NCBI GenBank assembly: GCA_021806235.1
Contig: JAJZXU010000016.1
Coordinates: forward strand, 1-64,000
DNA: 64,000 bases
Origin: Thermoplasmata archaeon
GTDB lineage: Archaea > Thermoplasmatota > Thermoplasmata > Thermoplasmatales > Thermoplasmataceae
Direction: 5' to 3'
In this document: positions 31,008 through 62,880 of the stretch, one piece after another
How positions within the stretch are numbered: the stretch's first letter is position 1
Layout of the letters: every line of letters begins with the position of its first letter
Translations under genes and position numbers: made by a program
The notes under the pieces: model-generated
Told to the model about the DNA's origin: nothing
Database searches by the model: none
Seen by the model: only the letters and a program-made list of their open reading frames with translations

Positions 31008-31406
31008 ATGCCAAAGGGCTACAGCAGTTCAAGCACATCTGTCCATTTCATGAACTATCATTTTGTCTGGTGCCCAAAATATAGAAGAAAGCTAATTACA
31101 GGGAATATTGAAATTAGATTAAAGGAGATAATCATGGGTGTTGCACAGGAAAATAACCGGGAGGTCATAGCACTGGAAACCATGCCAGACCATGTGCACC
31201 TCTTCACCAAAGCAGACCCAACAATAGCACCAAACAGGGTGATTGCGAAAATAAAAGGCAGAACATCAAGATTACTCAGGGCTGAGTTCCCTGAACTGAA
31301 GAGTAGATTACCTTCGTTATGGACAGGGAGCTATTTCGTATCTACTGATGGCCATGTTTCATCGGAAACTATCAAGAAATACGTGGAGGGTCAGAAGGGG
31401 ATATGA
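31008..31406 (+). CDS. tnpA: IS200/IS605 TnpA, Y1 single-strand transposase
   Basis: A 132-residue HUH/Y1 transposase. The metal site HVH is at residues 62-64 (TMPDHVHLFT) and the nucleophile is Y125 in TIKKYVEGQ. It cuts and joins single-stranded DNA at hairpin ends (peel-and-paste). Length normal. The tnpB start overlaps its stop by four bases (ATGATAA). A TATA-like tatatacg lies about 30 bases upstream. Confidence 0.93.
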   Translation: MPKGYSSSSTSVHFMNYHFVWCPKYRRKLITGNIEIRLKEIIMGVAQENNREVIALETMPDHVHLFTKADPTIAPNRVIAKIKGRTSRLLRAEFPELKSRLPSLWTGSYFVSTDGHVSSETIKKYVEGQKGI

Positions 31407-32668
31407 TAATGGCATATAAGTTCAGGATCTATCCGGATAAAGAACAGATCGCTATTCTTGTAAACGCCCTTAACGCCTGCCGTGAACTGTATAACACCAT
31501 GCTTCAGCAGAGAATATACGCATACAGAATGGGAAAAAAGGTAACCCGTTATTCCCAGGTAAATGAAATACCTGAGGTAAAGAAAGCATTTCCAGAATTC
31601 AATAATATCCATTCACAGGTAATACAGGAAGTCCCGGTGAGGCTTGATAAGGCATACGATAACTTTTATAGAAGAGTAGATAAGAAGTATAATGGCAAGA
31701 ACATAAAAGCAGGTTTCCCAAGATTCAAATCAAGAAAGAGGTATAATTCAATCACCTATCCACAGTCCGGATTTAAAATACTTGAGAATGGCCATATATT
31801 GGCATCAAAGATTGGTGAGGTAAGAATGTTCATGCACCGCCCTGTAGATGGAAAGATCAGGACACTTACCTTTAAGAGAAACGGTGCAGGTGAATGGTAT
31901 GCAATTATTACAGCTGGCGATCCTGATAAGGAACAGACTATTGAGGATCACTTTTCAATACTCAACGAAAATATGAATCCTGTGGGTTATGATGTAGGAT
32001 TAAAGTCACTTATAACGGACAGCAATGGGGAACATACAGAGGCACCAAAGTACCTCAGGAAATCAGAGAAAATATTGGCAAAGGCAAATAGAAACCTGTC
32101 AAGGAAAAAGAAGTACTCCAAAAACTGGTTCAAAGCCAATCGGAGGCTATCAAGGGTCTACAGGAAGACCGTAAGGCAGAGGGATGATTACTCAAATAAA
32201 TTATCCAGGAATATAGTAGATAATGGAAATCTAATAGTTTTTGAGGCACTAAATATACAGGGAATGGTAAGGAACCACCATTTAGCAAAGAGCATAGCAG
32301 ATGCTTCCTGGTACGATATCATAAGGAAAACAACCTACAAGGCTGAAAGTGCCGGTAAGGTTGTTTTGCTTGTTGATCCAGGGAATACATCTAAAATGTG
32401 CTCTAAATGTGGAAATATAAAGAAAGATCTAAAGCTTTCAGATCGGATATACAAATGCGATGCATGTGGCCTTGTTATGGACAGGGATGAGAATGCAGCT
32501 ATAAATATAAAAAACAGAGGACTATTGCTATTCCTGTATGCATACGTATATTTACAGAAACACTTTAAGAAAGTAGGGAGGGGCACTCCCGAATTTACGC
32601 CTGAGGAGATTGGAGCTCTACCCGCAAGGGCAACTCCCGTCGTTGAAACAGGAAGCCCACGGCTTTAG
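31403..32668 (+). CDS. tnpB: TnpB RNA-guided nuclease of IS605 element
   Basis: 421 residues, or 419 if the second ATG is used. RuvC-I D197 (GYDVGLKS), RuvC-II E281 (VFEALNI) and RuvC-III D362 (MDRDENAAINI) are all present. The zinc finger has C333, C336, C352 and C355. TnpB uses an RNA from the right end of the element to cut the empty site and so keep the element in the population. The reading frame runs on past the core domain into the right-end RNA region (GALPARATPVVETGSPRL), as is common. Confidence 0.93.
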   Translation: MIMAYKFRIYPDKEQIAILVNALNACRELYNTMLQQRIYAYRMGKKVTRYSQVNEIPEVKKAFPEFNNIHSQVIQEVPVRLDKAYDNFYRRVDKKYNGKNIKAGFPRFKSRKRYNSITYPQSGFKILENGHILASKIGEVRMFMHRPVDGKIRTLTFKRNGAGEWYAIITAGDPDKEQTIEDHFSILNENMNPVGYDVGLKSLITDSNGEHTEAPKYLRKSEKILAKANRNLSRKKKYSKNWFKANRRLSRVYRKTVRQRDDYSNKLSRNIVDNGNLIVFEALNIQGMVRNHHLAKSIADASWYDIIRKTTYKAESAGKVVLLVDPGNTSKMCSKCGNIKKDLKLSDRIYKCDACGLVMDRDENAAINIKNRGLLLFLYAYVYLQKHFKKVGRGTPEFTPEEIGALPARATPVVETGSPRL

Positions 32669-40224: not shown

Positions 40225-40677
40225 ATGGCACGAATGCATACACGTAAGAGAGGAAAATCCGGATCAAGAAGAATTTCAATGGCTGAGAGGCCTTCATGGA
40301 TCCAGCTTTCAGATGATGAGATAAAGGAAGAGGTAGTAAAGTTAAAGAAAGAAGGAATGTCAACCTCAGTGATAGGTGTTAAACTGAGGGACCAGTATAC
40401 AGTTCCCGGAGTTAGGCCTGTATTACATGAAAAAATGACAAAGGTACTGGAAGAAAACGGCGTAAAGGATGAGGTACCTGAGGATTTGCAGTTCCTCATA
40501 AAGAGGTATAAAAACGTATCAAAGCATCTCCTTTTAAATAAAAAGGATATCAGCAATAAAAGGGGAAAAGAGTTAATAATGGCAAAGATCCTGAGACTGG
40601 TGAGATATTATAAGCGCACAGGTCGTTTATCAAAGGACTGGTCATTAAATAGAGTTCTGTCAACTACCCACGACTAA
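40225..40677 (+). CDS. rpsO: 30S ribosomal protein S15, C-terminus altered by an inserted element
   Basis: A 150-residue archaeal S15 ([14 protein letters not shown]...[19 protein letters not shown]), with the conserved [21 protein letters not shown] near the end. The final codons STTHD read into the left end of an IscB-type element (TCAAC then taccc). If the element is taken out right up to the next start codon, S15 would end ...RVLST with its TGA inside the ATGA that starts the recJ-like gene. So the natural C-terminus was probably two or more residues different. Confidence 0.92.
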
Positions 40678-40911
40678 ATCCGTGGGCTTGTCCCGTGAGG
40701 GCAACGAAAGAGGTGCTCAGGGGGCTTTGAAAATATGAAAGAAAAGCAGAAGTTAGATCGGAGAAATACATGCACACCTACGGGTACTCCACAAGCCCGT
40801 GGCAACTGTGGCCATGCATTAAACAGAGAGGGGAGTCCAGGCGTACAGGGTTTAAAAACCTCTTCTAACAACCCCGATGTGGACATACAGTCAGGCATGA
40901 CCGGACGGGAC
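40665..40911 (+). ncRNA. Presumed IscB omega-RNA (copy A)
   Basis: The 247 bases before the IscB start codon carry the left hairpin and several short stems, among them a caagcccgtgg segment. A distal block, ctaacaaccccgatgtggac with tcaggcatgacc, is strongly shared with copies B and C. IscB omega-RNAs lie just upstream of the protein gene, with the guide at the 5' end. The guide would then be the last bases of rpsO. The ORF through this region (40735-40911) is taken as chance. Confidence 0.65.
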
Positions 40912-41695
40912 ATGAGAGTTCCCGTTTTAAACATGCGAAACCAACCATTAATGCCAACAACACCAGCTAAGGCGAGAAAACTTCTGAAGAAAGGCAGAGC
41001 AAAGGTTGCCCAGAGATCACCATTCGCCATACAGCTTCTATACGCAACAGGTGAAACAAAACAGAATATTACATTAGGAATAGACCCTGGGTATAAGCAC
41101 ATAGGCTTCTCGACAGTAACAGAAAAGGCAGAATTGCTCTCTGGAGAGACTGTCATAAGAACGGCATTCTAAATATGATGAAGGAGAAGTCCATGTACAG
41201 AAAATGCAGAAGGAACAGGAATACGTGGTACAGAAAACCGAGATTCATGAACAGGAAGCGTAAAGAAGAATGGCTTGCCCCGGGCATTGAACACAAGCTT
41301 GAAACCCATATACAACTGATTAATAAAATCAAGACCCATGCCAATGATGCATTCATCATAGCCGGTGGATCAACACAGAAGAGAACACCATTGTTTATGG
41401 TTTCCCAGAGAAGAAGAAATAACCGCTGCCTGCAACTGAACAGAAAGAGCTTTAAACCTTCTATACGGAGGAGGAGGTATTCATTGCAACTGGGGGCTCC
41501 TGTTATCTTCCAGAAAGATGAGTGGAACGTAGTGGGAATTCATAGTGTTGGCAAACAAGTGATTATTAAAAAAGGGGGGAAAAAGATGGATGTAAATGTA
41601 AAAAAGGTAAAGCTAAGAAGCTCCGGTAAAGGATTGAAATTTAATATCCAATTCATCCCACTCCCGAAGGGATGGGGAACCCTGGAGGTATCCTG
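40665..41695 (+). mobile_element. IscB-type (ISC, IS605 superfamily) element, copy A, decayed
   Basis: Preceded by TCAAC (40660-40664), as are copies B and C. Left hairpin cccacgactaaatccgtggg at about 40667-40686. Then the upstream omega-RNA region, a frameshifted IscB gene, and a right end that abuts the ATG of the recJ-like gene (right junction uncertain by about five bases because all three copies share GATGA there). No tnpA inside, so it depended on a transposase in trans, perhaps that of the IS605 element at 31008. Confidence 0.8.
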
Positions 41696-41696
41696 A
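40912..41696 (+). pseudogene. iscB: IscB, frameshifted and lacking RuvC-II and HNH
   Basis: From the ATG at 40912: MRVPVLNMRNQPLMPTTPAK is the PLMP domain and NITLGIDPGYKHIGFS is RuvC-I. The frame breaks at about 41160-41170 and resumes with MMKEKSMYRKCRRNRNTWYR (bridge and Arg-rich helix). HIQLINKIK is then joined straight to THANDAFIIAGG, which is RuvC-III. A normal IscB has RuvC-II and an HNH domain here, about 150 or more residues. The C-terminal RRNNRCLQLNRKSFKPSIRR and end domain are present. It cannot cut DNA as it stands. Confidence 0.85.
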
Positions 41697-43027
41697 TGAT
41701 AAAAGACATTTTAAATGAAAATTTATTTAATATTTTAACAGAGGCTTCTGACCTTCTAGGGGAAAATAAATACGTAAGGGTTCTGGCACATTACGATGGT
41801 GATGGTGTAAGCTCATCAATTATTTTACTAAAAGCACTGGAGCGGTTAAATATCAAATATCACTCCGGTTATGTAAAAAACCTTGACAATGAGGGATTCA
41901 GGGAGTTATACGATGAAGATCCGGACATTTTAAACATTATAGTTGATGCTGGCTCATCACAGGCACAATCAATTTCAGATTATGAAAAATTCATAATTCT
42001 GGATCATCATTTTTATAATAAAACTGATGTTAAGGGCATAAATATAAATGCTAGAGATTACGGGATTAATGGCACAAGGGAGGCGTGTGGTGCAACAATG
42101 GCATTTATTTTCTCATTAGTTCTTGATGAAAGTAATAAGGATCTATTTCCATTTTTTATGGCAGGTGTAATGGCAGATAAACAGGACATAGGCGGTTTAT
42201 CAGGTTTAAATAAATTATTGTATGATAATTATAATGTCTATTCAACAAAGCACGTATTAAACTTTGAGGGCAATATAAAGGATGGAATTACATATTCCAT
42301 AGACCCGTTTTTTATTAATCTAACAGGTTATCCTGATGATGTTGCAGCCTTTCTCAATAAAAATAATATCAGTGCTGATAAAAGCGTTATGGAACTTACA
42401 ACGGATGAGAATAAATTACTTGGCAATATCCTGTCATTAAAACTGCTTGAAAATAATGTTGGAATAGATGCAATCAAATATCTGGAAAGTGATATTTTAT
42501 ATTTCAATGATCTGGGCTTCTCATCAAAGGAATTAAATTCAATAATAGATGGAAACAGCAGAACCGCAAACCAGTCCGTGCCCGTTCAGTATTTTCTGGG
42601 TGATGAAAGTGTTGAAAATGATATGCTAAACAATGTAAAAATATACAAAACAAAATTAATTGATTACATATACAGGGCAAATTCAGAAATAAAGGAGGAA
42701 AAGTATTTAAGATATTTTTATTCCCCGGAATCAGAAATGGCAGGTCCAATATCCGGTGCAATAGGATTATATGCAATGAAACCCGATAAACCCGTAATTG
42801 GTTTTAATTCGGGAGACGAGGATATTAAAATTTCCTCAAGGGGCACAAAATCACTTGTATCACGTGGTTTAAACCTGTCAGTTGTTATGAAAGAAGCCTG
42901 TGAAAAGGCGGGTGGATCCGGTGGTGGCCATGATATAGCCGCAGGCGGTGTAATACCTGCTGGTAAAGAGAAAACATTTATTGAAGTGGCGAATAATATT
43001 ATAAAATCACAGTTAAAGCCAATATAA
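41696..43027 (+). CDS. RecJ-like DHH nuclease (GAN type)
   Basis: A 443-residue DHH-family phosphoesterase, like the archaeal GINS-associated RecJ-like nucleases of the replication complex. Motifs: HYDGDG (D34, D36), IIVDAGSS (D84), LDHH (103-105), and the DHHA1 end GGSGGGHDIAAGG at about 410-422. The ATG at 41696 is chosen; the longer frame from 41672 runs into the IscB element. The element separates it from rpsO, with which it likely formed an operon with an ATGA overlap. Confidence 0.88.
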   Translation: MIKDILNENLFNILTEASDLLGENKYVRVLAHYDGDGVSSSIILLKALERLNIKYHSGYVKNLDNEGFRELYDEDPDILNIIVDAGSSQAQSISDYEKFIILDHHFYNKTDVKGININARDYGINGTREACGATMAFIFSLVLDESNKDLFPFFMAGVMADKQDIGGLSGLNKLLYDNYNVYSTKHVLNFEGNIKDGITYSIDPFFINLTGYPDDVAAFLNKNNISADKSVMELTTDENKLLGNILSLKLLENNVGIDAIKYLESDILYFNDLGFSSKELNSIIDGNSRTANQSVPVQYFLGDESVENDMLNNVKIYKTKLIDYIYRANSEIKEEKYLRYFYSPESEMAGPISGAIGLYAMKPDKPVIGFNSGDEDIKISSRGTKSLVSRGLNLSVVMKEACEKAGGSGGGHDIAAGGVIPAGKEKTFIEVANNIIKSQLKPI

Positions 43028-57956: not shown

Positions 57957-58396
57957 CTGGTCGCCCCCAGGACTTTCCCATTCTTCAGGAGTGGGAGGAA
58001 TTTGAAGTTAATTTTCAATCCTTTACCGTACTTTCTCAGATTTACCTTTCCTACATTTACATCCATCTTTTTCCCTCTTTTTTAACGATCGCCATTGCTG
58101 GCATTAAAGATTAGTTTAGCATATTTAAAACGGTAACCATCAGGTTCCATTCAGTCATGCCTGACTGTAGATCCACACCGGGGTTGTTAGAGGAGTTTTT
58201 TAAACCGGGCACACTGAGAATTCTCTCTCTGTTTAATGACCTTAATACCATATTCCTGGACGGGTCACGGGTCTGTGTGGCATCCGTGTACGTATATCTC
58301 CGGTCTAACCTCTGCTTTTCTTTCATATTTTCAAAGCCTCCTGATCAACTCTTTTGTCCCATTCACGGGGCAGGCTCACAGCTTTAGTCGTGGGTA
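57957..58396 (-). mobile_element. IscB-derived non-autonomous element, copy B
   Basis: About 440 bases, reading leftward. It follows TCAAC (58401-58397) with the same left end taccc-acgactaaag as copy A. Then comes a homologous omega-RNA region and the first codons of IscB (to about the PLMP motif). A deletion joins these directly to the last 35 or so IscB codons (ggaaaaagatggatgtaaa) and the right end. No protein remains. It stands between nadK and its upstream region. Confidence 0.8.
58141..58396 (-). ncRNA. Solo omega-RNA-like region (copy B)
   Basis: 256 bases matching the region upstream of iscB in copy A: the start hairpin, gaggctttgaaaatatgaaa, then gaaaagcagaggttagac, and ctaacaaccccggtgtggat with cagtcaggcatgac. 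The degree of match, with substitutions kept in stems or loops not checked, suggests the RNA was conserved longer than the protein. The guide would come from bases just right of 58401. Confidence 0.55.
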
Positions 58397-58401
58397 GTTG
58401 A

Positions 58402-58647
58402 CAACTTACACCGATAGTTATCGAATATTGTTATGTGTTTAATTAATTTTATGATATTGAATAGAATGCACCCCATATTAATATAATACATACGTACATG
58501 GAGCCGGTAAAATATTATAACGGTGACCTAAACCATTCAGTATTATTATGGCATGATAACAGATAACTCTAAACGTAAATCATAACTTTGCGTTTTATAT
58601 ATTATTTTCAATAGTAATGAATTTATATTATTAAATTATATCAAACC
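58402..58647. promoter_or_regulatory. Divergent promoter region nadK / 58648 gene
   Basis: AT-rich, with TATA-like boxes for the rightward gene at about 58595-58640 (tatattattttcaatag, tatattattaaatt). The leftward promoter that once stood next to nadK must also lie here, now beyond element B. No gene seen. Confidence 0.45.
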
Positions 58648-62499: not shown

Positions 62500-62880
62500 C
62501 ATCCGACCTTCTCTAAGGAGACCACGTTCGCAAGAGCAATTAGGAATTGGAAACTGAAATTCAATCCTTTACCATACCTTCCTAGCTTTATCTTTCTTAT
62601 AATTACATCCATATTTTTTCCCTCTTTTTTAATGTGCATGTTTAAAATGGGGACCCTCAAGTCCCGTCCCGGTCATGCCTGACCGTAGGTCCACATCGGG
62701 GCTGTTAGAAGGGTTTTTACGCTCTGTATTCCGGAAATCCTCTCCCCATTTAATGATTTTAACACTCCGTCCGGGGTAGGTCACGGTTGCCATGGACCTG
62801 TGGAGCACCCGCGGGTGTGTATGTATTTCTCCTTTCTAACTTCTGCTTCATATTAAAGCCCCCTACATTCTCTGGGGGTA
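62500..62880 (-). mobile_element. IscB-derived non-autonomous element, copy C
   Basis: About 380 bases, leftward. It follows TCAAC (62885-62881) and starts tacccccagag. The omega-RNA region is shorter at the 5' end than in A and B. Only to about NM of the IscB start is left (ttttaaacatgc), then a jump to the last 35 codons (gggaaaaaatatggatgtaa). The right end lies at about 62500, just before rpsM; exact base uncertain. The deletion point differs from that in B, so the two losses were independent or stepwise. Confidence 0.75.
62661..62880 (-). ncRNA. Solo omega-RNA-like region (copy C)
   Basis: 220 bases homologous to the region before iscB in copy A: gaagcagaagttagaaagg, a stem around cacccgcgggtgctccacag, then ctaacagccccgatgtggac and tcaggcatgaccg. 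The strong cccgcgggtg palindrome matches the cctacgggtact block of A. About 40 bases of the first hairpins are missing. Confidence 0.5.

What the first reader, a model, noticed from the sequence alone, without database searches (positions are those of the whole stretch)
40912..41696. IscB internally trimmed: RuvC-II and HNH gone, RuvC-III joined in frame
Seen: HIQLINKIK runs straight into THANDAFIIAGG, in one frame, while an upstream frameshift at about 41160-41170 splits RuvC-I from the rest. The protein would be near 260 residues against 400 or more for a normal IscB. This is smaller than IsrB, which lacks only HNH. The clean in-frame joint may be chance, or the trimmed form may once have worked as an RNA-binding protein without cutting before the frameshift.
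Basis: partly seen in the sequence, partly recalled or inferred. Interest (0 to 1): 0.65.

Follow-up and report, generated by a model that had tools for sequence, protein, structure and literature searches.

The report
Decaying, internally deleted IscB transposon copy
An archaeal jumping-gene copy that once encoded the RNA-guided DNA cutter IscB has lost the middle of its gene and gained a frameshift; it is one of several differently trimmed copies in the same genome and is most likely ordinary decay, not a new small RNA-guided protein.

Summary
In detail: in ORF 41175-41696, HIQLINKIK runs in frame into THANDAFIIAGG, and a 1-nt shift with a stop at 41170 separates it from the RuvC-I part. Against a full-length copy in the same genome (L003, HNH present), the window copy lacks 453 nt (RuvC-II, HNH and the start of the RuvC-III segment). 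The "once a working non-cutting protein" reading is not supported. The joint occurs nowhere else among 389 phylum genomes or the archaeal relatives fetched. The same insertion point in sister genome G002 holds a much shorter element with another deletion. The window's HEARO/omega RNA scores below Rfam's threshold, and the missing RuvC-II is kept even in IsrB. The element is a 1037-nt IscB/HEARO transposon (40659-41695), inserted exactly in the 4-nt ATGA overlap of rpsO and a recJ-like gene. The genome holds a deletion series: four other trimmed copies with open frames (302, 219, 217, 209 codons) and many mini elements keeping mainly the HEARO end and the last ~120 nt. Two side points are worth keeping: all the longer trimmed copies are in frame (small numbers), and 29 of 33 element right ends abut a start codon that the element supplies with a Shine-Dalgarno.

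The parts
40659..41695 (+). IscB/HEARO element, 1037 nt, inserted directly before ATGA (41696-41699)
   Evidence: Boundaries from empty sites in relatives and alignment of copies
40659..40888 (+). HEARO (omega) RNA at the left end, degraded: several stem pairs broken
   Evidence: RF02033 77.9 bits, model 1-211 complete; below the 83-bit cut-off
40667..40686 (+). Left-end hairpin CCCACG...CGTGGG
   Evidence: DNA fold z-score -3.05
40225..40677 (+). rpsO (ribosomal protein S15); its last codons (STTHD) and stop TAA come from the element's left end
   Evidence: NF006331 E 1.6e-55; empty site in G005 ends ...RVL*
40897..41172 (+). N-terminal IscB piece: PLMP domain and RuvC-I (GIDPG at 41077-41091); ends at frameshift/TAA. 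The open frame extends back to ATG 40735 through the HEARO region
   Evidence: start inferred from L017/L019
41160..41175 (+). Frameshift (1 nt lost against L003), stop TAA 41170-41172, restart ATG 41175
41175..41696 (+). C-terminal IscB piece: bridge helix, then joint, RuvC-III (HANDA 41337-41351) and C-terminal domain; stop TGA 41694-41696 overlaps the recJ ATG
41330..41334 (+). Deletion joint KIK|THAND; 453 nt (RuvC-II, HNH, start of RuvC-III segment) missing against L003
   Evidence: unique
41684..41688 (+). GGAGG, element-borne Shine-Dalgarno-like motif for the downstream gene
   Evidence: same arrangement in most copies
41696..43027 (+). Downstream recJ-like DHH/DHHA1 gene, start codon within the ATGA target
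   Evidence: NF053576 E 6.3e-83; empty-site comparison

Best explanation
The feature is a degenerating, internally deleted copy of an IscB/HEARO transposon. An IscB element inserted into the ATGA overlap between rpsO and a recJ-like gene before the split of G000 and G002 (inferred from the shared insertion point). It was later trimmed in place, probably by illegitimate recombination at short imperfect homology, losing RuvC-II and HNH, and it took a frameshift. The genome carries a whole series of such deletion derivatives, which keep the two ends (HEARO RNA at left, last part of iscB at right) and lose varying amounts of the middle; they are plausibly mobilised by proteins made elsewhere. The in-frame joint needs no protein function. 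Shown: deletion, frameshift, deletion series, target site, RNA degradation. Inferred: the recombination mechanism, mobilisation in trans, order of events.
For: Full-length copy L003 with HNH in the same genome. Trimmed copies L002 (-525 nt), L004 and L005 (-777 nt), L006 (chimeric) with other joints, and mini elements keeping mainly HEARO plus the last ~40 codons. The window joint is unique: a 56-residue joint-spanning query hits other places only as one half, 1-29 or 25-56; the relatives in genome contigs whose locus covers the whole gene are full length. The same insertion point in G002 has a 452-nt element with another joint. HEARO score 77.9 against 89-119 for the other long copies in the genome. 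Frameshift with surrounding substitutions.
Against: All five longer trimmed copies have in-frame deletions, four with no other frameshift or stop. Copy-specific changes in the tails of L002, L004, L005 and L006 show 27 nonsynonymous to 20 synonymous (ratio ~0.39; p 0.0015 against neutral), though these may predate the deletions. L004 and L005 share one joint and have HEARO scores among the best in the genome. The frameshift is not confirmed by reads.
Confidence: 0.8

Rival explanations
1. Translational bridge: element ORFs are kept open because the iscB stop codon overlaps the downstream start codon, so ribosomes crossing an open remnant keep the operon expressed; only in-frame deletions survive.
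For: In 29 of 33 right ends an ATGA/GTGA next to the element opens a frame of at least 60 codons (15% for random ATGA/GTGA in the window), with GGAGG/GGGGG just upstream, and the iscB frame usually stops within 4 nt of that start. Five of five longer trimmed copies are in frame. In the window ORF1 stops 2 nt before the ORF2 start.
Against: Several mini elements upstream of clear genes have a broken frame (L011, L013 before a valS-like gene, L028 before recJ), so the element-borne Shine-Dalgarno seems enough. In-frame excess over all deleted elements is weak (9 of 16, p 0.05, copies not all independent).
Confidence: 0.25
2. The trimmed forms are or were functional non-cutting omega-RNA-binding proteins (dominant-negative or guided repressor).
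For: L004 and L005 have intact HEARO RNA, open frames and the same joint; tail changes look constrained.
Against: Joints differ between copies and do not follow domain borders; the only shared protein part is the C-terminal ~100 residues. The L004/L005 grouping has no tree support, so the joint may be recurrent or converted. The window copy is frameshifted with a degraded RNA. IsrB loses nicking when the PLMP domain, the HNH linker or beta-7 is deleted (PMC9581776), although that assay tests nicking and not RNA binding.
Confidence: 0.07
3. The frameshift is a sequencing or assembly error and the window encodes one intact trimmed protein of ~264 residues.
For: Draft genome (37 contigs); a single-nt difference separates the frames.
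Against: The shift lies in a stretch with several substitutions and no homopolymer, and the RNA is degraded too.
Confidence: 0.06

Closest known systems
IscB (RNA-guided nuclease of IS200/IS605-type elements; NF040563)
   Same: PLMP, RuvC-I, arginine-rich bridge helix, RuvC-III and C-terminal domain recognisable; HEARO/omega RNA directly upstream
   Different: RuvC-II and HNH missing, frame broken; ~264 residues against 475-481 codons in L003
IsrB (HNH-less nickase, PDB 8dmb)
   Same: No HNH; bridge-helix region (E 6e-4) and, weakly, the THANDA motif align
   Different: IsrB (~350 aa) keeps RuvC-II and a 19-residue HNH linker; here both are gone. The close relatives are HNH-bearing IscBs, so this is not an IsrB lineage
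HEARO RNA elements (RF02033), including copies with little or no ORF
   Same: Complete HEARO model match at the left end; insertion directly before ATGA/GTGA (the ATGA/GTGA preference of HEARO is recalled from the original description, not read here)
   Different: Score just below the curated threshold; retains half of iscB
Non-autonomous internal-deletion derivatives of transposons (MITE-like)
   Same: Ends kept, middle lost, several sizes in one genome, full-length copy present
   Different: Longer trimmed copies all have in-frame deletions

Membership tests
IscB | RuvC split in three with bridge helix | tested here: not met
   RuvC-I, bridge helix and RuvC-III present; RuvC-II absent. It is derived from IscB but is not an IscB nuclease
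IscB | HNH domain | tested here: not met
   No HNH sequence in 40659-41695; present in L003
IscB | Single intact reading frame | tested here: not met
   Stop at 41170, frame change
IsrB | RuvC-I, II, III without HNH, ~350 aa | tested here: not met
   RuvC-II and HNH-linker region missing; nearest relatives are IscB with HNH
HEARO RNA RF02033 | Score over the gathering threshold (83 bits) | tested here: not met
   77.9 bits, full-length match, E 1.2e-14; four other trimmed copies in the genome pass
HEARO RNA RF02033 | Full-length match to model at the element's left end | tested here: met
   Model 1-211, 40659-40888
Non-autonomous IscB/HEARO deletion derivative | Both ends kept, internal loss, full-length relative in the genome | tested here: met
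Non-autonomous IscB/HEARO deletion derivative | Mobility in trans | not testable with these tools
   tnpA (PF01797) genes are present in the genome, but which of them, if any, acts on these ends is unknown
RNA-guided nuclease-dead repressor (TldR-like) | Conserved dead protein with guide RNA matching host genes, under selection | tested here: inconclusive
   Constraint in trimmed tails cannot be dated relative to the deletions

The most novel reading that the evidence does not exclude
Trimmed IscB forms with intact omega RNA (L004 and L005 in the same genome; the window copy once) make non-cutting omega-RNA-binding proteins of about 150-220 residues, smaller than IsrB, acting as trans-dominant inhibitors or guided repressors of the full-length copies or of the host operons they sit in.
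Probability: 0.07. Interest if true: 0.75.

Novelty: new member of a known kind. Interest (0 to 1): 0.28.

Why it matters
It closes a tempting lead: a smaller-than-IsrB guide-RNA protein at this locus is best read as decay. The deletion series shows which parts of an IscB element persist (HEARO end, right ~120 nt). The comparison of filled and empty sites shows how such an element can sit in a stop-start overlap inside important operons (rpsO-recJ, nuoA-nuoB, mre11-rad50; the last two named from their sequences, not searched) by bringing an upstream stop codon and a downstream Shine-Dalgarno. That point is testable; I found no account of it in the papers searched, which exclude most subscription journals.

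Tried and rejected
Right-end hairpin as a transposase site: DNA folding gives z-scores of 0.0 to 0.65, no support. Dating the L004/L005 deletion by dN/dS (0.27): rejected as proof because the tree does not group the two, so the joint may be recurrent or converted. A first count of copy-specific changes had a frame slip caused by gap columns and was replaced. General in-frame bias over all deleted elements: 9 of 16, p 0.05, copies not all independent, weak.

Full report
WHAT IS THERE. The window carries a 1037-nt IscB/HEARO element at 40659-41695, between rpsO (S15; NF006331, E 1.6e-55) and a recJ-like DHH gene (NF053576, E 6.3e-83). The left 230 nt match the complete HEARO model (RF02033, 77.9 bits, E 1.2e-14, just under the 83-bit cut-off). 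The iscB gene is in two pieces. ORF1 has the PLMP domain and RuvC-I (GIDPG) and ends at TAA 41170-41172. ORF2 (41175-41696) runs from the bridge helix through the joint KIK|THAND to RuvC-III and the C-terminal domain. Pfam RRXRR and NCBIfam IscB match the two pieces in consecutive profile segments.

COMPARISON WITH A FULL-LENGTH COPY. The same genome holds a full-length copy, L003 (open frame of 481 codons, HNH present). Against it the window copy has one nucleotide fewer near 41164-41170, in a stretch with several substitutions and no homopolymer, and a net in-frame loss of 453 nt at ~41330-41334. The loss covers RuvC-II, HNH and the start of the RuvC-III segment. IsrB, the known HNH-less relative, keeps RuvC-II and a 19-residue HNH linker, and removal of that linker, of PLMP or of beta-7 abolished nicking (PMC9581776). 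ORF2 aligns with IsrB at the bridge-helix region and, weakly, at THANDA, with the part between missing.

IS THE JOINT SHARED? No. A joint-spanning 56-residue query over 389 genomes of the phylum found only the window as a continuous match; other matches are halves (1-29 or 25-56), as expected for full-length genes or other joints. In genome contigs, 19 loci encode a relative. Among the 13 best, those whose locus covers the whole gene are full length, with RuvC-I and RuvC-III about 235-245 residues apart; four others start at a contig edge or lack a clear RuvC-I motif in the open frame.

THE DELETION SERIES. Other copies in the same genome are trimmed differently: L002 loses 525 nt (302-codon frame); L004 and L005 lose 777 nt at one joint, MPTTP|GSITK (219 and 217 codons); L006 is a chimera with an N-terminal part like that of another lineage (209 codons). 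Mini elements of roughly 425-480 nt keep the HEARO end and about the last 40 codons. The trimmed proteins share only the C-terminal ~100 residues, so no common trimmed effector emerges. The joints fit short imperfect homology between the two sides, but the exact parents are unknown.

THE SAME SITE IN A SISTER GENOME. G002 has an element at exactly the same point, 452 nt long with another deletion. Inside the element it differs more from the window copy (18.5% in the left part) than the flanking genes do, so an independent second insertion is not excluded. In G005 and seven other genomes of the genus the site is empty, and rpsO and recJ overlap by the 4 nt ATGA.

STATE OF THE RNA. HEARO scores in the genome: L004 118.9, L005 107.8, L002 97, L003 93.4, L006 89.4, window 77.9, mini elements 64, 53 and 26. 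Some trimmed copies thus have a better RNA than the full-length copy, while the window's is on its way down.

IS ANY TRIMMED FRAME UNDER SELECTION? All five longer trimmed copies (window included) have in-frame deletions. Over all internally deleted elements the count is 9 of 16, p 0.05, with copies not all independent. Copy-specific changes in the tails of L002, L004, L005 and L006 are 27 nonsynonymous to 20 synonymous, ratio ~0.39, p 0.0015 against neutral; for the window 6 to 4, not informative. L004-L005 dN/dS is 0.27, but the two are not sisters in the tree, so the changes may have accumulated while the lineages were full length. Inconclusive.

TARGET SITE. In 29 of 33 right ends the element abuts an ATGA or GTGA that opens a frame of at least 60 codons (or one running off the stored stretch), against 15% of all such sites in the window. 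GGAGG or GGGGG lies just upstream inside the element, and the iscB frame normally stops on or next to the start codon. At rpsO, nuoA and mre11 (the last two named from their sequences) the rejoined flanks give an overlap in which the upstream gene's stop is the TGA of ATGA. The element thus supplies an upstream stop and a downstream Shine-Dalgarno-like motif. Mini elements with broken frames sit before valS-like and recJ genes, so an open iscB frame is not required for the downstream gene to persist.

VERDICT. The window feature is a decaying deletion derivative of an IscB/HEARO transposon. It stays open at low probability for L004 and L005.

Noticed in passing
57957-58402 (- strand) and about 62541-62864 (- strand): Two mini HEARO elements in the window, the first 446 nt and ending before an ATGA start codon of a 271-codon frame.
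   Followed up: partly
31008-32668: IS605-type pair: Y1 transposase tnpA (31008-31406) overlapping a tnpB-like gene (31403-32668).
   Followed up: no
L002, L004 and L005 (own genome): Trimmed iscB frames with HEARO RNA scores above that of the full-length copy; candidates for any test of trimmed-protein function.
   Followed up: partly
L002 left end: Left-end hairpin arms read ACCAACC/GGTTGG where other copies have ACCCACG/CGTGGG: both arms changed together.
   Followed up: no
L006 N-terminal part; compare L018 (G003): Chimera of two IscB lineages joined in frame (KADLLVFILNKDGKPLIPCKPAKAKHPLKEKKTKVIQRT).
   Followed up: partly
L015 (G000) and L039 (G002): Mini element upstream of the same ileS-like gene in two species, so some insertions persist across species.
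   Followed up: no
contig ends G000:C26, C27 (left halves) and C2, C10 (right halves): Element halves at contig ends suggest two more long copies with near-identical cores that broke the assembly.
   Followed up: no
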